Below are positions 9,370 to 20,252 of a DNA stretch of 36,127 nucleotides, one piece after another. The notes under the pieces are model-generated. The model had not been told where the DNA came from, did no database searches, and saw nothing but the letters and a program-made list of their open reading frames with translations. Source of the stretch: Bacteroidota bacterium (GTDB taxonomy: Bacteria; Bacteroidota; Bacteroidia; Chitinophagales; Saprospiraceae); assembly GCA_029781095.1 (NCBI GenBank), contig JAKOXM010000473.1, forward strand, positions 1 through 36,127. The letters are read 5' to 3'. The stretch's first letter is position 1; each line of letters begins with the position of its first letter. The position numbers were made by a program, and so were the translations under genes.

Positions 9370-9451
9370 AGTTAATAGTTATCAGTTATCGGTCAACGGT
9401 TGTTTTTCTCACGAATCATGGACAAAGGCCGGTAACTGACTACCAACAACT
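9370..9451. repeat. Inverted array of degenerate heptamers (tRNA-Thr/Tyr spacer)
   Basis: The left arm 9370-9404 is exactly five 7-mers (AGTTAAT, AGTTATC, AGTTATC, GGTCAAC, GGTTGTT). The right arm 9431-9451, read on the other strand, is three more (AGTTGTT, GGTAGTC, AGTTACC). The arms can form an imperfect hairpin. It belongs to the spacer family described in the findings. Confidence 0.75.
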
Positions 9452-9458
9452 AAACCAA

Positions 9459-9542
9459 GGGGGTGCCCCGGAGTTGGAGAGCCGGGCCAGACTGTAAATC
9501 TGGTGCTTCACTGCTGAGTAGGTTCGAATCCCACCACCCCCA
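9459..9542 (+). tRNA. tRNA-Tyr (anticodon GTA)
   Basis: An 84-nt tRNA with the long variable arm expected of bacterial tRNA-Tyr. Acceptor GGGGGTG pairs with CACCCCC, the anticodon loop holds GTA, and the discriminator base is A. CCA is not encoded. Matches the position of E. coli tyrU. Confidence 0.97.
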
Positions 9543-9545
9543 CTT

Positions 9546-9575
9546 TACCCGCCGGAGCATCGGCGAAGGCGGGTA
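9546..9575 (+). other. Hairpin after tRNA-Tyr
   Basis: TACCCGCC pairs with GGCGGGTA across a 14-nt loop, followed by TTTCTTCT. It could be a weak terminator or a processing signal between tRNAs. A second small hairpin (ACCGCC with GGCGGT) follows at 9614-9639. Confidence 0.45.
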
Positions 9576-9643
9576 TTTCTTCTGTTTGTCATGACGAAGA
9601 AAATTGAATTGTCACCGCCTTCGCTAGGGCTTCGGCGGTTAAA

Positions 9644-9716
9644 GCGGTGGTAGCTCAGTTGGTAGAGCGTCAGCCTTCCAAGCTGAATGTCGCGAGTTCG
9701 AATCTCGTCCGCCGCT
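9644..9716 (+). tRNA. tRNA-Gly (anticodon TCC)
   Basis: A 73-nt cloverleaf with acceptor GCGGTGG pairing with CCGCCGC (one G-U) and anticodon loop CTTCCAA. CCA is not encoded. Matches the position and anticodon of E. coli glyT. Confidence 0.96.
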
Positions 9717-9724
9717 CCGGAATG

Positions 9725-9813
9725 ATTGTTAATTTCTAATTGTTAATTGTTGAATCCCGCTTGCGGTGCAAACACAAACGAACTTCACCAATGAACAATT
9801 ATCAATCAACAAA
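9725..9813. repeat. Inverted array of degenerate heptamers (tRNA-Gly/Thr spacer)
   Basis: The left arm 9725-9752 is four 7-mers (ATTGTTA, ATTTCTA, ATTGTTA, ATTGTTG). The right arm 9786-9813 is four more on the opposite strand (ATTGATA, ATTGTTC, ATTGGTG and a variant). A 16-nt block matches its inverted partner with two mismatches. Confidence 0.75.
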
Positions 9814-9816
9814 CGT

Positions 9817-9888
<72 letters not shown>

Positions 9889-9894
9889 CGAAGC

Positions 9895-9983
9895 AATGTG
9901 GTAAAGTGATAATTTCTCAATGTGGTAAGGATAGGGTTAAAATATTATCACATCATACACTCACATTATCGAATTATCGCATT
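9895..9983. repeat. Inverted array of degenerate octamers (tRNA-Thr/tuf spacer)
   Basis: The left arm 9895-9934 is five 8-mers (AATGTGGT, AAAGTGAT, AATTTCTC, AATGTGGT, AAGGATAG). The right arm 9952-9983 is four on the other strand (AATGCGAT, AATTCGAT, AATGTGAG, TGTATGAT). Same design as the neighbouring spacers but with a different word. Confidence 0.7.
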
Positions 9984-10029
9984 AAATAACATTTTTTCAC
10001 TTAAATTTTGACTTAAAAGTCTTTTACCA

Positions 10030-11235
10030 ATGGCAAAAGAGACATTCCAGCGCACCAAGCCGCACGTAAATATTGGCACGATCGGTCACGTTGACCACGG
10101 CAAGACGACGCTGACGGCCGCCATTACTTATGTTCTTTCTCAAAAGGGTCTGGCAAAGAAAACTGACTACGATGCCATTGATGCTGCTCCGGAAGAAAAA
10201 GAGCGTGGTATTACGATTAACACAGCACACGTAGAATACGAAACGGAAAAGCGTCACTATGCGCACGTTGACTGCCCGGGTCACGCCGACTACGTTAAAA
10301 ACATGATCACGGGTGCCGCCCAGATGGACGGTGCTATCGTAGTATGTGCTGCCACTGACGGCCCGATGCCACAAACGCGTGAGCACATCCTGCTCGCCCG
10401 CCAGGTAGGCGTTCCGAGAATCGTCGTATTCATGAATAAAGTGGATGCTGTCGACGATCCCGAAATGCTTGAACTCGTTGATATGGAATTGCGCGAACTG
10501 CTCAGTTCCTATAACTTCGATGGCGACAATGCATCCATTATCCAGGGCTCGGCTCTGAAAGCCCTCGAAGGCGACGGCAAAACCGGCGTATGGGCGGAAA
10601 AGATCATGGAACTGATGGACGCATGCGACAACGACATCCCTGATCCGGTACGTGAAGTTGACAAACCTTTCCTGATGCCGGTGGAAGACGTATTCACCAT
10701 CACGGGTCGCGGAACGGTTGCTACCGGCCGTATCGAACGCGGTGTGATCAACGTCAACGATCCTGTAGAAATCATCGGTATGATGAAGGAAGGCGAAAAA
10801 GCGCTGACCTCTACCGTAACCGGTGTGGAAATGTTCCGCAAACTGCTTGACCGCGGTGAAGCAGGCGACAACGCAGGTTTGCTTCTGCGCGGTATCGACA
10901 AAGAGCAAATCAAGCGCGGCATGGTTATTTGCAAGCCGGGCAGCGTGAAACCGCACAAACACTTCAAGTGCTCTGTTTACGTGCTTTCGAAAGATGAAGG
11001 CGGTCGTCACACACCGTTCTTCAACGGCTACCGTCCGCAGTTCTACTTCCGTACGACGGACGTAACCGGTGATGTAACCCTGCCCGCCAACGTGGAAATG
11101 GTTATGCCCGGCGATAACATCGAACTCGAAGTGAAACTGCTCAACACCATCGCTATGGAAAAAGGTCTCCGTTTCGCTATCCGCGAAGGTGGCCGTACGG
11201 TGGGTGCAGGTCAGGTAACCGAGATCATCGATTAA
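10030..11235 (+). CDS. tuf: Translation elongation factor Tu
   Basis: A 401-aa GTPase that delivers aminoacyl-tRNA to the ribosome. Motifs present: P-loop GHVDHGKT at 19-26, switch I RGITI near 59-63, DCPGH at 81-85 and NKVD at 136-139, followed by the two beta-barrel domains and the C-terminal VTEIID. The start [20 protein letters not shown] matches the family. It sits directly after four tRNAs and before tRNA-Trp, and is probably co-transcribed with them. The length is a few residues over the usual 394-396, which is normal for this phylum. Confidence 0.99.
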
Positions 11236-11253
11236 TAAAAAATATTCCGGTCT

Positions 11254-11317
11254 GCGGTAGGCGATAGACGGTTGACGGTTCATAGCCGTCAACCGTCGAC
11301 CGCCATCCGTTGACCGT
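11254..11317. repeat. Inverted array of degenerate heptamers (tuf/tRNA-Trp spacer)
   Basis: The left arm 11254-11281 is four 7-mers (GCGGTAG, GCGATAG, ACGGTTG, ACGGTTC). The right arm 11283-11317 is five on the opposite strand (ACGGTCA, ACGGATG, GCGGTCG, ACGGTTG, ACGGCTA). The core 11267-11278 with 11286-11297 is a perfect 12-bp stem with a 7-nt loop. Confidence 0.8.
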
Positions 11318-11322
11318 TTTAC

Positions 11323-11395
11323 AGGGGCATAGCTCAATTGGTAGAGTGGCGGTCTCCAAAACCGCAGGCTGCGGGTTCGAGCCCTGCTGCCCCTG
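11323..11395 (+). tRNA. tRNA-Trp (anticodon CCA)
   Basis: A 73-nt cloverleaf with acceptor AGGGGCA pairing with TGCCCCT and anticodon loop TCTCCAAAA-type with CCA. The discriminator is G. It lies just upstream of secE, an arrangement common in bacteria. Confidence 0.97.
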
Positions 11396-11410
11396 CCGGA
11401 AGTAAAAAAT

Positions 11411-11515
11411 GTTGCTCGTTCATCGGCGTTCGTTGTTCGTCTCCATACGACAACGGACTTTTTGCACAGTGGGCGGAACAGACTTTTTGAACGGACAACT
11501 AACAATTATTAACGA
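11411..11515. repeat. Degenerate heptamer dyad (tRNA-Trp/secE spacer)
   Basis: The left arm 11411-11438 reads as four 7-mers (GTTGCTC, GTTCATC, GGCGTTC, GTTGTTC). The right part, 11489-11515 on the opposite strand, contains related words (AGTTGTC, CGTTC). Two direct copies of GACTTTTTG also occur in the loop. Weaker than the other members. Confidence 0.5.
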
Positions 11516-11524
11516 TTTAGTGTA

Positions 11525-11722
11525 ATGGAAAGATTGACGCTTTATTTGAAAGAAAGCTACCATGAACTCGTGAAAAACGTCTCATGGCCTACTGCTGCGC
11601 AATTGCAGGAAAGCACGATCGTGGTATTGACCACATCGGGTATTCTGGCTTTGCTCATCTTTTTAATGGACGTCGTTTGCAGCGTCTTTTTCAAAAACAT
11701 CTACGGGGTTTGGGGGCAGTAA
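11525..11722 (+). CDS. secE: Preprotein translocase subunit SecE
   Basis: A 65-aa single-span membrane protein of the SecYEG channel. The amphipathic N-terminal part ESYHELVKNVSWPTAAQLQ carries the conserved V-x-WP motif, followed by one transmembrane helix at about residues 31-55. This is the short form found in most bacteria outside the gamma-proteobacteria. It precedes nusG by 42 nt, as in most bacteria. Confidence 0.96.
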   Translation: MERLTLYLKESYHELVKNVSWPTAAQLQESTIVVLTTSGILALLIFLMDVVCSVFFKNIYGVWGQ

Positions 11723-11764
11723 ACCCAAGTTCACTTCCATCACATTTCCTTCCCGTTTAGAACC

Positions 11765-12343
11765 ATGAGTCAGGAAAAAGAAACAGTGGCCTCCGAAGCT
11801 GCTGATAAGAAATGGTATTCTCTCCGCGTCATCAGCGGGAAAGAGAAGAAGATTCAGGAACGGATCCTGCTCGAAATCGAGCGGTCCGGGTGGAAGGATA
11901 TTGTCTTTTCAGTGATCGTACCTACTGAAAAGGTGTACAAGATTCGGAACGGTAAAAAAGTGATGCAGGAACGGAACCTGTTGCCCGGCTATATTCTGAT
12001 CGAGGCAGTGGGAGCCAAACTGAATGGCGATATCGCCAAGGTGATCGCCGACATACCCAATGTCATTCATTTTCTCGGCAAGGAAACCCCTATTCCGATG
12101 ACCCAGGTAGAGGCCAACCGCCTGCTGGGCAAAGTAGATGAAAGCAGCGAGGCAGGCGAGACCCTCAGCGAACCTTTCCTGATCGGCGAGACGGTGAAGA
12201 TTATCGACGGACCTTTTGCCGAATTTATCGGCGACATACAGGAGGTGAATGAAGAAAAGAAGAAACTGAAAGTGATCGTCAAGATTTTCGGGCGAGGCAC
12301 GGAGGTGGAACTCAATTTTATGCAAGTGGAAAAAATCGGTTAA
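11765..12343 (+). CDS. nusG: Transcription termination/antitermination factor NusG
   Basis: A 192-aa RNA polymerase-associated factor. The NGN domain spans about residues 15-125 (WYSLRVISGKEKKIQERI, LLPGYILIEA) and the C-terminal KOW domain about 138-190 (GETVKIIDGPFAEFIGDIQE). It lies between secE and rplK, the standard location. It promotes processive elongation and links transcription with ribosomes or Rho. Confidence 0.97.
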   Translation: MSQEKETVASEAADKKWYSLRVISGKEKKIQERILLEIERSGWKDIVFSVIVPTEKVYKIRNGKKVMQERNLLPGYILIEAVGAKLNGDIAKVIADIPNVIHFLGKETPIPMTQVEANRLLGKVDESSEAGETLSEPFLIGETVKIIDGPFAEFIGDIQEVNEEKKKLKVIVKIFGRGTEVELNFMQVEKIG

Positions 12344-12355
12344 ACCAGTCTGTTT

Positions 12356-12378
12356 AAACCCCGCTTCTCCCGGGGTTT
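12356..12378 (+). other. Hairpin between nusG and rplK
   Basis: AAACCCCG pairs with CGGGGTTT over a 7-nt loop just after the nusG stop. The following bases are GCTTCC rather than a T-run, so at most partial attenuation or mRNA processing is expected. A second dyad (AATTTTCA with TGAAAATT) lies at 12439-12459, just before rplK. Confidence 0.5.
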
Positions 12379-12467
12379 GCTTCCAAAGAGACGGTTTCTA
12401 CAGGTTTCATATAAATTAATCAGATTCAAATCTCTGTTAATTTTCAAATTCTGAAAATTCAGATCCA

Positions 12468-12917
12468 ATGGCAAAAGAAGTAGATGTTTATATTAAGCTT
12501 CAGGTAAAGGGTGGCCAGGCCAACCCCGCTCCGCCTATCGGTCCGGCACTCGGTTCCAAAGGCGTGAATATCATGGAGTTTTGCAAGCGCTTCAACGCGC
12601 AAACGCAGGAACAGCAAGGCAAAGTGCTCCCGGTAATCATTTCGGTATACAAAGACAAAACCTTTGACTTTGTTATCAAAACGCCCCCGGCTGCCATCCA
12701 GTTGTTCGAAGCGGTCAAACTGCAGCCCGGCAAGGGCTCTGCCGAACCCAACCGTAAAAAAGTGGGCTCTGTAACCTGGGATCAGGTGCGTGCGATCGCC
12801 GAAAGCAAAATGCCTGACCTCAACTGCTTTACAGTCGAATCGGCCATGAAAATGATCGCCGGAACGGCTCGCAGCATGGGTATTACGATCAGCGGTACGG
12901 CACCGTGGGATAATTAG
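12468..12917 (+). CDS. rplK: 50S ribosomal protein L11
   Basis: A 149-aa protein of the GTPase-associated centre. The N-terminal domain holds the proline-rich [11 protein letters not shown] loop (about residues 20-30), the thiostrepton-site region, and the C-terminal domain binds 23S rRNA ([15 protein letters not shown]). Length is near the usual 141-148. It is the first gene of the rplKAJL run, 124 nt after nusG. Confidence 0.98.
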
Positions 12918-12918
12918 A

Positions 12919-12989
12919 AAGGTTCCAAGGTTACATGGTTTCAAGGTTCTAAACCATGAAACACTGTAACCCTGAAACCTCGTAACCCT
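12919..12989. repeat. Inverted array of degenerate octamers (rplK/rplA spacer)
   Basis: The left arm 12919-12950 is four 8-mers (AAGGTTCC, AAGGTTAC, ATGGTTTC, AAGGTTCT). The right arm 12950-12989 is five on the opposite strand (AGGGTTAC, GAGGTTTC, AGGGTTAC, AGTGTTTC, ATGGTTTA). It is the same word family as in the rpoB downstream spacer. A small hairpin (GTTCCG with CGGAAC, 13008-13024) follows. Confidence 0.8.
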
Positions 12990-13050
12990 AATAACCATAA
13001 AAAGGGAGTTCCGCCCAACGGAACGCTTCACCTTTAAATACAACTTTTCA

Positions 13051-13746
<696 letters not shown>

Positions 13747-13856
13747 CCGGTTGCAGTTACCGGCGGCGGCAGGGGGAAGCAGAAAAATTATGATTCCTTC
13801 TCCGGCTCAAGGGACTCAACCATCCATTCAACACTCACATTTCAATTTATCAAGAA

Positions 13857-14384
13857 ATGACCAGAGAAGATAAAAATGTGGCGATTGCGGAGTTAAAAGA
13901 GGAATTGACCGGCACACCGTTCTTTTACCTTACCGATTCCTCAACGCTTACAGTTGCCAAGATCAACAAGTTTCGCCGGATGTGCTACGACAAAGGCATT
14001 TCTGTCAAAGTGGCTAAAAACACTTTGATACAGAAAGCCCTTGAAGATGCGCCGGAATCGAAGGGATATGCAGCGCTGTTCGACATCCTGAAAGGGCCGA
14101 CCACGATCCTGATCTCGGCGAATCCGAAAGCGCCGGCCAAATTGCTCGAAGAATTCCGCAAAACGGAGGAGCGCCCATTGCTGAAAGCAGCCTACATCGA
14201 TTCATCCGTATTCATCGGCGACGAGCAGCTTGCAGCGCTCGTGAAACTGAAGAGTAAGGAAGAGATGGTCGGCGAGATCATCGGCCTGCTCCAGTCGCCT
14301 TCGAAACGCATTGCCAGCCAGCTCACCGCTACCGGTGCCAAAATTGCCGGTATCGTCAAAACGCTGGAAGAGCGCACCGCTTAA
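13857..14384 (+). CDS. rplJ: 50S ribosomal protein L10
   Basis: A 175-aa protein that anchors the L7/L12 dimers to the ribosome. The N-terminal rRNA-binding domain has the usual KNTLIQKAL and GPTTILIS blocks and the C-terminal helix that binds L12 is present. The 110-nt upstream spacer has a small hairpin (CCGGT with ACCGG, 13747-13763). L10 leaders are often autoregulated, but I cannot identify the motif here. Confidence 0.97.
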   Translation: MTREDKNVAIAELKEELTGTPFFYLTDSSTLTVAKINKFRRMCYDKGISVKVAKNTLIQKALEDAPESKGYAALFDILKGPTTILISANPKAPAKLLEEFRKTEERPLLKAAYIDSSVFIGDEQLAALVKLKSKEEMVGEIIGLLQSPSKRIASQLTATGAKIAGIVKTLEERTA

Positions 14385-14396
14385 TGACAATGAGAT

Positions 14397-14527
14397 AATG
14401 TGCAAATGCTGCACGTTAGCGCATTTATTACGGCTTCCAAGTTCGCACTATATACCCAATCTGACCCGACCCCTTGAATCATTGCAACCCAACAGACCTT
14501 GAACCATTTTTCACACATTTCGCAAAT
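14397..14527. repeat. Weak octamer dyad (rplJ/rplL spacer)
   Basis: Words related to AATGTGCA occur at 14397-14413 and, inverted, at 14511-14527 (ATTTGCGA, AATGTGTGA). It looks like a decayed member of the spacer dyad family; the middle of the spacer shows nothing else. Confidence 0.4.
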
Positions 14528-14548
14528 AACTTTTAAAATTCTACTACA

Positions 14549-14935
14549 ATGGCAGATTTGAAAGCACTGGCTGAATCGCTCGTGAGCCTCACGATTAAAG
14601 AAGCCAATGAACTGGCCAATATCCTGAAAGATGAATACGGTATCGAACCCGCTGCTGCAGCTGTTGCTGTTGCAGGACCGGCTGCTGGCGGTGCCGGCGG
14701 CGGTGAAGCAGCTCCGGCTGAAAAAACCGAGTTCGACGTCGTGCTGAAAGACGCAGGTGCCAACAAACTCAACGTCGTGAAGGAAGTTAAAAACCTCCTC
14801 GGCCTGGGCTTGAAAGAGGCAAAAGACCTCGTGGATGGCGCTCCCAGCCCGCTGAAAAGCGGTGTAAACAAGGCTGAGGCAGAATCCATCAAGGCAGCAC
14901 TTGAGGCTGTCGGCGCAGTGGTCGAAGTAAAGTAA
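14549..14935 (+). CDS. rplL: 50S ribosomal protein L7/L12
   Basis: A 128-aa stalk protein that recruits translational GTPases. The N-terminal dimerisation helices (residues 1-35), the flexible Ala/Gly/Pro hinge (about 38-58) and the C-terminal globular domain ([20 protein letters not shown] onward) are all present. Multiple copies bind L10. Confidence 0.98.
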
Positions 14936-15046
14936 GCAGTCTGGTTTCTGGTTTTGACCCCGATAACTCGGGATCACCTCGGTTAACTGACTACTTACTT
15001 TCGACAAATGCCAGGTACTCAACCTTTTTTCAGATAATAGCGATTG

Positions 15047-15086
15047 GGCTTAACGCGCCCCCTGTAAGTCAGGGACGCGTTAAGCC
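15047..15086 (+). promoter_or_regulatory. Strong hairpin in the rplL-rpoB spacer
   Basis: GGCTTAACGCG pairs perfectly with CGCGTTAAGCC. Inside it CCCTG pairs with CAGGG, with one internal mismatch and a TAAGT loop. No T-run follows. In E. coli the same junction carries an attenuator and an RNase III processing site, so a role in setting the ribosomal protein to RNA polymerase ratio is plausible but inferred. Confidence 0.65.
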
Positions 15087-15226
15087 TATCCCTGTCTGTA
15101 AGGGTTTGGGTTTTGAACAATTACCTCTGTTTAATCGTTTAACAGGCTTGCAAACACTCACGCAGGCCTTCGTCACGCAAAGGCGTGGCAACATTGCCAA
15201 CCAGCATTCAAGCATACTTTGCAAAA

Positions 15227-18200
15227 ATGACCAATAACGGCATCTCTAACGGGGCAAACCACAAAACAGGCGTTCAGGAACGCGTCAATTTTGGTAAAAT
15301 TCGCCTCGCTGGTCACTATCCTGACCTCCTTGAAATTCAACTTAAATCGTTCCAGGAATATTTCCAGCTGGAAACCACACCCGAGAACCGTATCAACGAA
15401 GGTCTCTACCGTGTTTTCCAGGAAAATTTCCCGATCACCGACGCGCGGAACATATTCAACCTGGAATTTCTCGATTATTTCATCGATCCGCCCCGCTACA
15501 CCATCGACGAGTGTATGCAGCGCGGACTCACGTACTCCGTACCGTTGAAGGCCAAATTGCGCCTCTCCTGCAACGACCCGGAACACATCGATTTCCAAAC
15601 GATCGTACAGGACGTATTCCTCGGAAACATCCCGTATATGACGCCGAAAGGTACATTCGTGATCAACGGAGCCGAACGCGTCATCGTTTCGCAGCTGCAC
15701 CGCTCGCCGGGTGTGTTCTTCGGACAGAGCTACCACCCGAACGGAACGAAGATCTACAGCGCTCGCGTCATCCCTTTCAAAGGGGCATGGATGGAGTTCG
15801 CGACGGATATCAACCTGGTCATGTATGCCTACATCGACCGGAAAAAGAAATTCCCCGTCACCACGCTCCTGCGCGCAATCGGATTCGATACGGACAAAGC
15901 CATCCTCGACCTGTTCAACCTGGCCGATGAGATTGCCTGCACCCGCGACAACCTGGAGGCGTCCGTAGGCCGCAAACTGGCTGCGCGCGTACTGAAATCA
16001 TGGACGGAAGACTTCGTAGATGAAGATACGGGCGAGGTAGTGACCATCGAACGCAACGAGATCATACTCGAGCGCGATACGATGCTCGATGAAGAGAATA
16101 TCGAACTCATTCTCGACGCCGGTACGACGACCATCATTCTCCAGCGTACCGACATCGATGAAGATTTCTCCATCATCTACAATACTCTGCAAAAAGACCC
16201 GACTTCGAGCGAAATCGAAGCCGTGACCTATATATACCGGCAATTGCGCGGTTCCGATCCCCCGGACGATGAAACGGCTCGCGGTATTATCGAGAAACTC
16301 TTTTTCTCCGATAAACGCTACAACCTCGGCGAGGTCGGCCGTTTCAAGATCAACCGCAAACTCGGCCACAACATCGACGAGAACAACCTGGTTCTGACCA
16401 AGGAAGACATTATCGCCATCGTGCGCTATATCGTCTCCCTGATCAACAACAAATCGGAGATCGACGACATCGACCACTTGTCAAACCGTCGTGTTCGAAC
16501 GGTGGGCGAGCAACTTTACGCCCAGTTCGGCGTCGGCCTGGCCCGTATGGCCCGCACCATCCGCGAGCGGATGAACGTGCGCGACAACGAGGTGTTCACG
16601 CCTGTCGACCTGATCAACGCGCGTACCCTGTCGTCGGTGATCAACTCGTTCTTCGGCACGAGCCAGTTGTCGCAGTTTCTTGACCAGACGAACCCGCTTT
16701 CCGAGATCACCCACAAGCGCCGTATTTCGGCACTGGGGCCGGGCGGTTTGTCCCGCGAACGGGCAGGTTTCGAGGTGCGCGACGTACACTATTCACACTA
16801 TGGCCGTCTTTGCACGATTGAAACGCCGGAGGGACCGAACATCGGTCTTATTTCGACGCTGTGCACCCACGCCAAGATCAATAAAATGGGTTTCCTTGAA
16901 ACGCCTTACCGCCGCGTAAAAGACGGAAAGGTCGTGATGGAAGGAAATGAAGAATATCTTTCTGCCGAAGCGGAAGACTACATGAAAATCGCCCAGGCGA
17001 ACACGCCTGTGGGAGAAAATGGAGCCTTCCTCAACGATCGTGTGAAAGCCCGTGAACACGGTGACTTCCCGATCCTGTCGCCGGAAGAAGTGGAATACAT
17101 CGACGTGGCGCCCAACCAGATTGTAGGTGTGTCGGCATCGCTGATTCCGTTCCTTGAGAACGATGACGCCAACCGCGCGCTTATGGGATCGAACATGCAA
17201 CGCCAGGCTGTACCGCTTATCCGCCCGCACTCTCCGATCGTGGGTACGGGCCTGGAAGCCAAAGTGGCCCGTGACTCCCGCATGCTGATCAATGCTGAGG
17301 GCAGTGGCGTGGTCGAATACGTGGATGCCAACGAGATTGTCATCAACTACGACCGCACGGAAGAAGATCAGCTGGTTTCGTTCGAAGATGCGCGCAAGAC
17401 CTATACGCTCACCAAGTTTATGCGGACCAACCAGGGTACCTGCATCAACCTGAAGCCTATTGTACGCCGCGGCCAGCGTGTTGAGGAAGGCGATATCCTT
17501 TGCGAAGGATATGCTACCGAAAACGGCGAACTCGCACTCGGCCAAAACCTGAAAGTGGCATTTATGCCGTGGAAAGGTTACAACTTCGAGGATGCCATCG
17601 TGCTCTCCGAACGCGTTGTTCAGGAAGACATATTTACGTCCATCCACATCGAGCACTTCGAACTCGACGTGCGAGATACGAAACTCGGTGAGGAAGAACT
17701 CACGGCCGATATTCCGAACGTAAGCGAAGAGGCTACGAAAGACCTCGACGAAAACGGTATTATCCGCATCGGCGCCTGGGCGAAAGAAGGTGATATCCTT
17801 ATCGGCAAGATCACGCCGAAAGGTGAAACCGACCCGACGCCGGAAGAAAAACTGTTGCGCGCTATCTTCGGCGATAAAGCCGGCGATGTGAAAGACGCTT
17901 CTCTGAAAGTGCCGCCGAGCATCAACGGCGTCGTGATCGACAAGCAGTTGTTTGCCCGTGCGAAAAAAGACAAGGTGCAGAAAGAATCGGAGAAAGCCCT
18001 GCTCGACAGGCTCGACGACGAGCATGCAATCGCACTCAACAAACTGAAGACGATCCTGATCGACAAACTGCAAGTGCTGGTGAAAGACAAAACCACCAAC
18101 GGCATCCGCAGTATTTATGGATCCGAAATGGCGCCGAAAGGAACCAAACTCAGTGTTCAGGTGCTGCGCGAGCAAATCGAATACAGTGAAGTGGATTACA

Positions 18201-19066
18201 CCAACTGGACGAGCGAGAAAAATACCAATGCCTTGATCGCCAGGTTGTTGCACAACTACAGCATCAAAGTAAACGAAGAAGTAGGCCGCTACAAGCGTGA
18301 GAAATTCAACATCAGCATCGGTGACGAACTCCCCGCAGGCGTGTTGAAACTGGCGAAAGTTTACCTCGCTAAAAAGCGCAAACTCAAAGTGGGCGACAAA
18401 CTCGCAGGCCGCCACGGTAACAAAGGGATCGTAAGCCGTATCGTCCGGATGGAAGACATGCCTTTCCTTGCTGACGGCACCGCGGTAGATATCGTACTCA
18501 ACCCGCTGGGCGTACCTTCCCGTATGAACCTCGGTCAGATATTTGAAACGGTACTCGGATGGTCGGGCGATCGTCTTGGTCTCAAATTCGCCACCCCGAT
18601 CTTCGACGGAGCCAAAACCCACGAAGTGGAAGAGTGGATCGAAAAAGCCGGCTTGCCGGAATTGGGCCAGACATTCCTCCACGACGGCGAAACGGGCGAC
18701 CGCTTCCACCAGAAGGCGACAGTAGGCATCATTTATATGCTCAAACTCAGCCACATGGTGGACGACAAGATGCACGCACGTTCGATCGGTCCATACTCTC
18801 TCATCACCCAGCAACCACTCGGCGGTAAAGCCCAGTTCGGTGGCCAGCGTTTCGGTGAGATGGAGGTGTGGGCACTCGAAGCCTACGGCGCATCCAATAT
18901 CCTGCAGGAACTGCTGACCTACAAGTCGGATGATATCCAGGGTCGTGCGAAAGCCTATGAGGCCATCGTAAAAGGCGACAACCTGCCGGATGCCAATATA
19001 CCGGAATCATTCAACGTACTCGTGCACGAATTGCGCGGTCTGGCGCTGGATGTGAAGTTTGAATAA
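15227..19066 (+). CDS. rpoB: DNA-directed RNA polymerase subunit beta
   Basis: A 1279-aa catalytic-core subunit. The rifampicin pocket region ([20 protein letters not shown], with Asp486 and the downstream His, Arg, Ser and Leu) is of the sensitive type. Other family blocks include [12 protein letters not shown] and the C-terminal [19 protein letters not shown] prefer the ATG at 15227 (MTNNGISNG) over the GTG at 15185 because recalled Bacteroidota homologues begin shortly before RVNF and the first 14 residues of the longer form look non-conserved. One oddity is Thr530, where the motif [10 protein letters not shown] usually has Pro. It starts 291 nt after rplL and is followed by a glycosyltransferase-like gene rather than rpoC. 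Confidence 0.98.
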
Positions 19067-19068
19067 AC

Positions 19069-19172
19069 AAGGTTTCAGTGTTTCAAAGTTTCAAGGTTTC
19101 AGGGTTATTGTTTTCAAAAAACTTCTAATCCTGAAACCTTGAAACTTTGAAACCCTGAAACCCCGAAACCCG
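19069..19172. repeat. Inverted array of degenerate octamers (after rpoB)
   Basis: The left arm 19069-19108 is five 8-mers (AAGGTTTC, AGTGTTTC, AAAGTTTC, AAGGTTTC, AGGGTTAT). The right arm 19133-19172 is exactly five on the opposite strand (CGGGTTTC, GGGGTTTC, AGGGTTTC, AAAGTTTC, AAGGTTTC). This is the clearest member of the family. It fills nearly the whole rpoB downstream spacer and ends 3 nt before the next start codon. Confidence 0.88.
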
Positions 19173-19175
19173 ATA

Positions 19176-20252
19176 ATGGAGTACATCTGCACCTGGATTT
19201 ACCTGGACAGCCCGGAAGAAAGTTCGGAGTATCCGCAAGTTGGAAAAAAATCGCATTTGCCTGATTTTCAAAAAGTTTATTGGAAATGTGTGGCCGTTTT
19301 TTTCGCTTGCAGTACCCGGTTCAATCCGCAAAGGCGACATGTGCTTTTTACCAACAGGCAACAACAGGATATCCCGGAAGTAGATGGATTCGACCTCGGC
19401 AGTTTTTTGAAAGACCTGGATGTAGAGATCGTCACGATCCCGCTCAGCTGGCAGACGCCGGAAGGGTATTTTGGAAAATGGCGCAATCAGTTCTACATTT
19501 TTGATATTTTACAGTTCATTGAAAATCAATATGGTTCGCAACCCGATGCGCGACGAATTTCCAGATCCGTCGAATCGAACACTGCAAAAACGGACTGGGA
19601 AATCCGTCGAACGGATAATTCCGAGCCGTGTTTTGTCGTCCTCGATTCGGATTGTATCGTCAATAGTGCTTTGGATGAATTGTTTGATTCGATACGCCGG
19701 TACGGGCTCCTGGCCTTGCCAATGCCTTACAGCGAAACGCACTACATCAATGGCGTGACGCGGGAAGACATGCGGTGGATATACACGGATCTCGACGGCA
19801 GCGATCCCGGAAATAACCCCGTTTATTATGGCGGGGAAATTTTTGCGGCTGCGCTTCCGGTTATCCGGCAGATCAACCGTATCGCTCCGGTCGTTTGGAA
19901 CAAAATGCTGGATCGATTTCGGGCAGGACAACCCAAACTGAATGAAGAAGCCCATTTTCTGAGCTATTGTTACCACAAAATCGGTGGTTTTGGTTCCTTG
20001 GAGGGCTTTATCAAGCGGATCTGGACCTCGCCGAAATATTCAAACGTCGAGCCCAAAGATATCCGATTGCCGATCTGGCACCTTCCCTCTGAAAAAACGG
20101 GAGGTATTGCGTTGCTCTTTAAGAATCTCGCAGCCGGAAACTGGAATTCAGACGAGTTGGGCGGGTATGTGGGTGTGCCGAATCGGAAAAAATACCTCAA
20201 CCTGAAACACTGGATCAGGTATACACGGGTATACAAAATGCTAAAAAATTGA
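19176..20252 (+). CDS. Glycosyltransferase-like protein inserted between rpoB and rpoC
   Basis: A 358-aa protein with no signal peptide or membrane span. The centre resembles a GT-A type nucleotide-sugar transferase: FVVLDSDCIV with a DxD-like Asp157-Ser158-Asp159 (metal and sugar-nucleotide binding), a YYGGEIFAA block near 218-226 and an acidic NEEAHFLSYCYH motif (Asn256 to His260) that may supply catalytic acids. The C-terminal part is basic and aromatic. I cannot name the family or the acceptor. It reads in the same direction as rpoB and rpoC, 109 nt after one and 67 nt before the other, so it must be transcribed with them or stop them. It may be a late insertion into the operon. Confidence 0.7.
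   Translation: MEYICTWIYLDSPEESSEYPQVGKKSHLPDFQKVYWKCVAVFFACSTRFNPQRRHVLFTNRQQQDIPEVDGFDLGSFLKDLDVEIVTIPLSWQTPEGYFGKWRNQFYIFDILQFIENQYGSQPDARRISRSVESNTAKTDWEIRRTDNSEPCFVVLDSDCIVNSALDELFDSIRRYGLLALPMPYSETHYINGVTREDMRWIYTDLDGSDPGNNPVYYGGEIFAAALPVIRQINRIAPVVWNKMLDRFRAGQPKLNEEAHFLSYCYHKIGGFGSLEGFIKRIWTSPKYSNVEPKDIRLPIWHLPSEKTGGIALLFKNLAAGNWNSDELGGYVGVPNRKKYLNLKHWIRYTRVYKMLKN

What the first reader, a model, noticed from the sequence alone, without database searches (positions are those of the whole stretch)
9370..19172. Spacers of the tRNA-tuf-rpl-rpo operon are filled with word-specific tandem 7-mer/8-mer dyads
At least six spacers hold arms that are exact-phase tandems of a degenerate 7-mer or 8-mer, facing each other as imperfect inverted repeats: 9370-9451, 9725-9813, 9895-9983, 11254-11317, 12919-12989 and 19069-19172. 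A weaker seventh and eighth lie at 11411-11515 and 14397-14527. The word changes between spacers (AGTTATC, ATTGTTA, AATGTGGT, ACGGTTG, ARGGTTTC) but the two arms of one spacer share it. Only rplK-rplA and the rpoB 3' spacer use the same word. This is not a known feature of ribosomal operons that I can name. Shared words per spacer suggest arms homogenised by hairpin template switching or slippage, or selection on the RNA hairpin.
Basis: seen in the sequence. Interest (0 to 1): 0.7.

Follow-up and report, generated by a model that had tools for sequence, protein, structure and literature searches.

The report
Heptamer-octamer word hairpins behind genes
In many of these bacteria, gaps after genes hold hairpins built from short 7- or 8-letter DNA words; genomes differ in their favourite words, and the two sides of a hairpin keep the same word, nearly always in one orientation, as if DNA copying had folded back on itself.

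Summary
Partly confirmed. In the window, lag 7 or 8 beats dinucleotide shuffles in five spacers (p 0.003-0.010); tThr-tuf is marginal (0.07) and the two 'weaker' ones fail. In 371 orthologous spacers of 35 loci, 93 carry a significant array, 78 of period 7 or 8. Of 76 array-bearing spacers, 82% hold the array's complement elsewhere in the spacer, against 4.6% for the same spacer in other genomes and 4.4% for shuffles. Words are genome-specific: GGTTTCAN x2 occurs 155 times here, at most 20 times in 40 congeners; GGTNGAC x2 1196 times in G022, 0 times in 19 of 41 genomes. New regularities: the arm with more G is 5' in 72 of 76 hairpins, most codirectional hairpins start at a stop codon, and arrays are scarce between divergent genes in two of three sampled genomes. 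The layout resembles published G-rich heptamers of Xanthomonas, read as G-quadruplexes; only 4 of 76 arms fit that. Best reading: slippage plus directional fold-back template switching, words spreading within genomes. Function and the 7/8 period stay unexplained.

The parts
9370..9451 (+). word hairpin, period 7 (AGTTATC), between tRNA-Thr and tRNA-Tyr; tandem 5' arm 9370-9400; facing arm weak
   Evidence: p 0.003; fold z -3.3; complement in rest of spacer 8.5, below the cut of 10
9725..9813 (+). word hairpin, period 7 (ATTGTTA), between tRNA-Gly and tRNA-Thr; tandem 5' arm 9725-9751
   Evidence: p 0.010; fold z -1.75; complement 10.5; one search score 40
9895..9983 (+). possible word hairpin, period 8, between tRNA-Thr and tuf; its 3' part is similar in several relatives
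   Evidence: p 0.07 (marginal); fold z -4.0; complement 8.0, other genomes reach 10.5
11248..11318 (+). word hairpin, period 7 (CGGTTGA; of the GGTNGAC word family), tuf to tRNA-Trp
   Evidence: p 0.003; fold z -9.3; complement 16
12919..12989 (+). word hairpin, period 8 (GGTTNCAN), starts 1 nt after the rplK stop codon
   Evidence: p 0.003; fold z -5.9; word 155 times in genome, one mismatch allowed
19069..19172 (+). word hairpin, period 8 (GGTTNCAN), starts 2 nt after the rpoB stop codon; nearly perfect stem
   Evidence: p 0.003; fold z -11.9 and fold drawing; mirror test of this one hairpin p 0.17
11411..11515 (+). claimed weak array between tRNA-Trp and secE: not significant here; holds an AACGGACTTTTT stretch seen in 12 of 34 loci
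   Evidence: p 0.36; z -0.8
14397..14527 (+). claimed weak array between rplJ and rplL: not significant here; holds GGCTTCCAAGTTCGCAC, seen in 18 of 34 loci
   Evidence: p 0.50; z +0.4

Best explanation
Each element is a hairpin [word]n-loop-[reverse-complement word]n, usually placed just behind a stop codon or tRNA 3' end. Shown: period 7 or 8; arms that share a word within a genome while words differ between genomes; genome-specific word sets; G/T-rich 5' arm; start at the stop codon; scarcity between divergent genes in the two array-rich genomes sampled. Inferred: arms lengthen by slippage of one or more units; the nascent 3' end folds back on the G/T-rich arm and copies it (intrastrand template switch), so the 3' arm is repeatedly rewritten from the 5' arm. 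Because G.T wobbles hold such a fold-back and A.C mispairs do not, correction pushes pairs to G-C and T-A, giving the polarity on either strand. Existing arrays also rewrite arms elsewhere in the genome by short-homology conversion, so a few words take over a genome while each loop stays private. Elements are tolerated in transcribed 3' gaps and removed from divergent promoter gaps; a useful role of the bare hairpin (guarding mRNA 3' ends, separating tRNAs) is possible but not shown.
For: Arms share a word within a genome but not across genomes at the same spacer: 82% vs 4.6% vs 4.4% shuffled, 76 spacers. Polarity 72 of 76, 3 reversed, 1 tie; 12 of 13 in added operons; 20 of 21 in other Bacteroidota loci, 10 of these from one locus; by an independent inverted-repeat search 44 to 10 for tandem against 83 to 57 for plain repeats. 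Pair counts 5'-3': G-C 650 vs C-G 139, T-A 778 vs A-T 399, the asymmetry that the Discussion of PMC8794818 derives for intrastrand template switching. Neighbouring units more alike than in shuffled order, z 7.5, 83 arrays. Mirrored unit order in aggregate, z 5.3, 43 hairpins. The tuf-tTrp hairpin differs by 5 units (35 nt) in each arm between G021 and G017. Words of both arms differ at three spacers between G006 and G016 (by eye). Loops of same-word loci in G000 look unrelated (10 loci printed, by eye). G022 plus G023: divergent gaps hold 7 of 79 arrays against 36% of gap length, p 5e-8; 17 of 20 codirectional hairpins lie within 10 nt of the stop, 7.9 expected.
Against: The per-hairpin mirror test is positive in only 1 of 43 at p<=0.01 and 4 of 43 at p<=0.05, so recent fold-back copying is not visible in most. 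Point changes between G007 and G009 do not look compensatory (by eye). Polarity is weaker by two other measures: 8 to 5 for tandem repeats of G007, and 60 to 15 when each spacer's best array is placed in its 5' or 3' half; a looser tandem class gives G-C/C-G 2.18 and T-A/A-T 1.29. In G007 2 of 7 gap arrays, and its only hairpin, lie between divergent genes. PMC8794818 needs a preferred strand for its asymmetry; the wobble argument used here to avoid that is mine and untested. Nothing explains why 7 and 8 rather than other lengths. Ectopic spread is inferred from word counts only.
Confidence: 0.45

Rival explanations
1. The hairpin itself is selected as an RNA element at mRNA 3' ends and between tRNAs (blocking 3' exonucleases, guiding cleavage, tuning read-through), and the word is free to drift as long as both arms agree.
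For: Start at stop codons (17 of 20), scarcity between divergent genes in G022 and G023, strong fold z in several spacers, presence in essential operons.
Against: 11 of 34 genus loci have no 7/8 array in the same spacers (whether they hold other hairpins there was not tested), unit variants are rarely mirrored, and stems seem to decay without compensation between G007 and G009. A bare structural need does not predict period 7/8 or G/T-first polarity.
Confidence: 0.25
2. G-rich heptamer arrays act as G-quadruplexes, as proposed for Xanthomonas and Nostoc (PMC4692102).
For: [quoted passage not shown]
Against: Only 4 of 76 5' arms here hold a four-run GGG motif and 21 of 76 a GG motif, yet 72 of 76 share the polarity.
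Confidence: 0.07
3. Words are binding sites of an RNA- or DNA-binding regulator, as suggested for TAACTGA repeats (PMC4679880).
For: One word with steady and variable positions recurs at many places in a genome.
Against: One genome uses many unrelated words and congeners use different ones, so a regulator would need many fast-changing specificities; the stem hides the sites.
Confidence: 0.08
4. A mobile element family (REP/MITE-like) with a dedicated enzyme inserts the hairpins.
For: High copy number of a word in single genomes.
Against: Same-word loci share no loop or flank that I could see (10 loci); arm lengths vary freely. No transposase search was made, and no filled/empty pair was available to look for a target duplication.
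Confidence: 0.1

Closest known systems
GGGAATC / GGGGA(C/T)T heptamer arrays of Xanthomonas and Nostoc (Rehm 2015, PMC4692102; passages seen)
   Different: A single G-rich word type per organism was studied and read as G-quadruplex; in Nostoc only few inverted pairs. Here many words per genome, periods 7 and 8, mostly without quadruplex motif, arm words tied within a spacer
TAACTGA direct repeats (MacGregor 2015, PMC4679880; abstract and section 10 read)
   Same: Intergenic heptamer arrays, also in five Bacteroidetes and in putative ribosomal protein operons
   Different: Direct repeats (one indirect) mostly just before start codons in BOGUAY; a single word studied
Heptamer stem of the Nostoc tRNA-Leu intron P6b, TDNGATT or NNTGAGT (PMC4476775; passages seen)
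   Same: Stem built of heptamers; one of two words occupies the same place; some length changes on both stem sides
   Different: A single intron locus with two words; here many spacers with many words
Template-switch mutations that create and maintain RNA hairpins (PMC8794818; abstract, passages and Discussion read)
   Same: Explains reverse-complement arms and an excess of 5'-G-C and 5'-U-A pairs
   Different: Described for rRNA and microRNA stems, not for tandem-word spacers; the asymmetry there needs a preferred strand

Membership tests
G-rich heptamer arrays (PMC4692102) | tandem 7-nt unit, intergenic | tested here: met
   but period 8 is also common, and of 113 arrays in G022 and G023 79 lie in called gaps and 17 inside called genes
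G-rich heptamer arrays (PMC4692102) | few between divergent ORFs, near stop codons, convergent inverted pairs | tested here: met
   (G022 and G023; G007 with 7 gap arrays does not show the divergent scarcity)
G-rich heptamer arrays (PMC4692102) | able to form G-quadruplex | tested here: not met
   4 of 76 5' arms with a four-run GGG motif, 21 of 76 with GG; motif only, no spectroscopy
TAACTGA repeats (PMC4679880) | word TAACTGA as direct repeats before start codons | tested here: not met
   Other words, 76 inverted pairs, start at stop codons
Intrinsic terminators | stem followed by U tract | tested here: not met
   No T run after the window hairpins and no + strand site there in the consensus scan, which covers loops of 3-8 only; 2 of 20 codirectional hairpins in the samples are followed by 6 or more T
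REP/BIME elements | tagged 20-40 bp palindrome and RAYT transposase | not tested
   No search for RAYT or tags was made; the 20-40 bp definition is from the search listing of PMC3733652, the RAYT link is recalled
Template-switch hairpins (PMC8794818) | 5'-base directed pair asymmetry (G-C > C-G, U-A > A-U) | tested here: met
   650 vs 139 and 778 vs 399; looser tandem class 449 vs 206 and 572 vs 445, plain repeats 715 vs 580 and 747 vs 705
Template-switch hairpins (PMC8794818) | several paired changes explained by one event in close relatives | tested here: inconclusive
   Symmetric 35+35 nt difference in one spacer; aggregate mirror z 5.3; per-hairpin test mostly negative

The most novel reading that the evidence does not exclude
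Bacterial genomes carry private libraries of 7- and 8-nt words, evolving like eukaryotic satellite libraries, that are written as one-way (keto to amino) hairpins behind stop codons by a directional fold-back copying process acting across Bacteroidota and possibly in Cyanobacteria and Xanthomonas; the polarity is a genome-wide fossil of intrastrand template switching.
Probability: 0.35. Interest if true: 0.8.

Novelty: new variant of a known kind. Interest (0 to 1): 0.6.

Why it matters
Intergenic heptamer arrays have been reported under different readings (quadruplexes, regulator sites, an intron stem). The data here put many words under one set of rules: period 7/8, G/T arm first, start at the stop codon, same word in both arms, words private to a genome. 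If the polarity is the trace of fold-back copying, hairpins of array-rich genomes become a record of template-switch direction, and an array-rich cultivable strain could be used to measure it.

Tried and rejected
Mirror copying as a sufficient account of each hairpin: rejected, 1 of 43 at p<=0.01 (43 of the 76 hairpins had enough units), though the aggregate is positive.

G-quadruplex as the cause of the polarity: 4 of 76.

General G-richness after stop codons: gaps without arrays show no such skew; G-poverty before start codons is general and not array-specific.

Loss of SbcD as the permissive cause: a full-scoring SbcD sits in G004, G008, G012 and G052, with 0, 0, 0 and 1 arrays in the operon. 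A fifth, array-rich G014 (5 arrays), passes the cut-off only when neighbouring pieces in the frame are added (78.3 bits); I counted it as absent. Fisher p 0.10 over 34 genomes, relatedness not corrected; shorter SbcD-like hits occur in most genomes. Kept as a lead only.

Recent births between G007 and G009: 160 kb of G007 against 180 kb of G009, 115 kb aligned at 94.3%; of 16 listed arrays 9 had both flanks in the other genome, and none gave a clean filled/empty site.

Transposon family: same-word loci share no loop or flank that I could see.

Rfam: only tRNAs at gathering level; below it two weak miRNA-family matches, far under their gathering scores, on the minus strand of two array spacers.

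PMC4060949: passages searched for heptamers, none found.

Rows dropped and biases: arrays with a strong period 1-4 signal and stretches with N were left out of the hairpin set; hairpin arms may lie up to 200 nt apart and a few pairs span a tRNA gene; the 134 pairs and 93 complementary pairs include overlapping loci, hence 76 after removing duplicates. 9 of the 37 sampled hairpins were left out of the stop-codon distances because a called gene overlapped or a flank was missing. L026 and L032 were left out as near-duplicates; still count both members of the near-identical pairs. Counts per period include one N run per period in G022 and a poly-T stretch in G023; nine of the 20 fetched G000 contigs gave an N run over their whole length. 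Gene calls come from my own quick codon-usage caller.
Full report
Setting. The window lies in a 5.96-Mb, 830-contig assembly. Among the best 80 rplK relatives kept from named genomes the closest is a Saprospiraceae metagenome bin at 91% identity, so I take it as a Saprospiraceae-type Bacteroidota. The region is tRNA-Thr, tRNA-Tyr, tRNA-Gly, tRNA-Thr, tuf, tRNA-Trp, secE, nusG, rplK, rplA, rplJ, rplL, rpoB, an unknown 358-aa ORF, rpoC (protein gene names from order and my reading; tRNAs).

Is it there? I scored every spacer for its best tandem lag between 4 and 20 and compared it with 300 dinucleotide shuffles of that spacer. Five of the six spacers named as strong fold better than shuffles at z below -3, rpoB-3' (-11.9) and tuf-tTrp (-9.3) most; tGly-tThr reaches only -1.75. 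Five unclaimed spacers also have z below -2, so stable folding alone does not mark the arrays. In tThr-tTyr and tThr-tuf the complement of the array in the rest of the spacer is weak (8.5 and 8.0).

Is it general? I fetched the same operon from relatives. In 279 spacers of 24 loci, 66 have p<0.02; the best lag is 7 in 36, 8 in 16 and 14 in 5. With 11 more genomes, 93 of 371 spacers are significant with score 9 or more, and 78 of the 93 have lag 7 or 8. In 400 kb of G022 there are 40 period-7 and 16 period-8 arrays against 1 and 2 in shuffles; in 321 kb of G023, 40 and 21 against 1 and 1 (these include an N run in G022 and a poly-T stretch in G023). G007 is poor in arrays: 6 and 7 in 460 kb against 2 and 3, fewer than its period-6, -9 and -12 arrays. 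Eleven of 34 genus loci have no 7/8 array in this operon, among them the small genomes G002, G011, G019 and G051 but also G008, G012 and G024 of about 6 Mb (sizes). In the three smallest of these the tThr-tTyr spacer is only 13-20 nt. Outside the genus the signal is patchy: in 15 loci of the same order 6 period-7 and 2 period-8 arrays against 2 and 0; in 79 named loci 59 period-7 against 7 in shuffles, 16 of them in one Chitinophagaceae locus, L100, and 12 period-8 against 6, while multiples of three are also common. Hairpins were found in 8 of 94 such loci; with periods 5 to 10 allowed, 19 of 21 have period 7.

Words. The word changes between genomes at the same spacer and is shared by both arms. 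For 76 array-bearing spacers I compared the array with the rest of its own spacer, unselected, and with the same spacer of other genomes. Complement score >=10 was found in 82% of own spacers, 4.6% of 1933 other-genome comparisons and 4.4% of shuffles; the own spacer was strictly best in 50 of 76. Whole-genome pattern counts show private lexicons. GGTTTCAN twice (one mismatch allowed) occurs 78+77 times in G000 and at most 20 times in the other 40 genomes of the genus searched; the pattern read backwards gives 12 or fewer. GGTNGAC twice occurs 1196 times in G022, 553 in G023, 439 in G021, 314 in G047 and 0 times in 19 of 41, with controls of 6 or fewer. AGTTATN three times occurs in 37 of 296 genomes across the phylum; the backward control occurs in 10 of 296 by my count. 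Same-word loci in G000 have different loops and flanks (10 loci printed, about 8 of them hairpins, read by eye).

Polarity. In 76 hairpins the 5' arm has more G than C in 72, fewer in 3, equal in 1. Eleven added operons give 12 of 13, and other Bacteroidota loci 20 of 21, ten of these from L100 with overlapping pairs. Because the reverse complement of such a hairpin has the same polarity, this is independent of the strand read. A separate search for inverted repeats in called gaps gives 44 to 10 (3 ties) for tandem ones, by genome 20:0, 16:5 and 8:5, and 83 to 57 for plain ones. Placing each spacer's best array in its 5' or 3' half gives 60 to 15. Lone arrays in codirectional gaps lean the same way: G-rich sense near the stop 7, near the next start 2; C-rich sense near the start 12, near the stop 4. 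Pair counts in the 76 are G-C 650, C-G 139, T-A 778, A-T 399; a looser tandem class gives ratios 2.18 and 1.29, plain repeats 1.23 and 1.06.

Placement. Of 113 arrays in the G022 and G023 samples, 79 lie in called gaps and 17 inside called genes. The 79 are 57 codirectional, 15 convergent, 7 divergent, while divergent gaps make up 36% of gap length (arms of one hairpin count twice). G007, with 7 gap arrays, has 2 in divergent gaps and its one hairpin there. Of 20 codirectional hairpins, 17 start within 10 nt of the upstream stop codon, 7.9 expected under uniform placement in the same gap. In the window the rplK and rpoB hairpins begin 1 and 2 nt after the stop codon. Consensus scanning, which covers loops of 3-8 only, lists no + strand terminator at the six hairpins.

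How arms change. Neighbouring units are more alike than in shuffled order (z 7.5; identity 0.816 at lag 1, 0.615 at lag 6 and more, 83 arrays), the mark of tandem duplication. Unit variants are mirrored between arms only weakly: aggregate z 5.3 over 43 hairpins, 4 of 43 individually at p<=0.05. Between G021 and G017 (91% in operon genes) the tuf-tTrp hairpin differs by 35 nt in each arm; between G006 and G016 (90%) both arms differ in word at rplK-rplA, rplA-rplJ and rplJ-rplL; between G007 and G009 (97%) stems differ by point changes without visible compensation (read by eye).

Mechanism. The Discussion of PMC8794818 argues that intrastrand template switching corrects stems according to the 5' base and so enriches G-C and U-A over their mirror images. 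That is the asymmetry seen here, clearly stronger than in plain repeats of called gaps. That paper needs a preferred strand; I propose instead that the strand carrying G.T wobbles folds back more readily than its partner carrying A.C mispairs, which yields the same bias on both strands. This step is inference. Slippage supplies length; ectopic conversion, also inferred, supplies the shared lexicon. Why the step is 7 or 8 nt stays unexplained.

Relation to known things. PMC4692102 reports for Xanthomonas GGGAATC arrays a very similar placement and 70 and 75 convergent inverted pairs in two species, few such pairs in Nostoc, and reads them as quadruplexes (passages). Here 4 of 76 5' arms have such a motif. 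PMC4679880 reports TAACTGA arrays, including five Bacteroidetes. PMC4476775 describes the P6b stem of the Nostoc tRNA-Leu intron, built of TDNGATT or NNTGAGT heptamers. I found no paper describing many-word lexicons with arm-matched words or this polarity in the listings; that library lacks most subscription journals.

Verdict. Real and orderly, widespread in this genus and patchy beyond it: a new variant of known intergenic heptamer arrays, with three regularities (private lexicons, polarity, stop-codon start) that make a directional copying origin testable. Function is not shown.

Noticed in passing
19176-20252: A 358-aa ORF sits between rpoB and rpoC. No Pfam, NCBIfam or PDB match; homologues at 52-67% identity in 7 of 140 loci, six of this genus and its closest named relative.
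   Followed up: partly
9544-9643: Strong hairpin without significant tandem words between tRNA-Tyr and tRNA-Gly (fold z -6.7; tandem p 0.87).
   Followed up: no
12990-13050, 14432-14448, 11452-11463: Shared short elements beside the arrays: GAGTYCCRCC in rplK-rplA (21 of 34 loci), GGCTTCCAAGTTCGCAC in rplJ-rplL (18 of 34), AACGGACTTTTT before secE (12 of 34). No Rfam family; possible leader or attenuator elements.
   Followed up: partly
G004, G008, G012, G052: Only these 4 of 41 genomes have a clear full-scoring SbcD (a fifth, G014, only with neighbouring pieces added); the four are poor in arrays, G014 is not. Fisher p 0.10, not corrected for relatedness.
   Followed up: partly
L024 vs L028, rplK-rplA spacer: Where G017 has a 57-nt longer hairpin, G021 has a 16-bp palindrome with the same outer ends TGTGG...CCACA, as if the inside of the hairpin had been deleted.
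   Followed up: no
L100: A Chitinophagaceae bin with 16 period-7 arrays and 10 (partly overlapping) hairpin pairs in 19 kb, words such as AGTCTGG, CGTGAGG, GTTTGGC.
   Followed up: no
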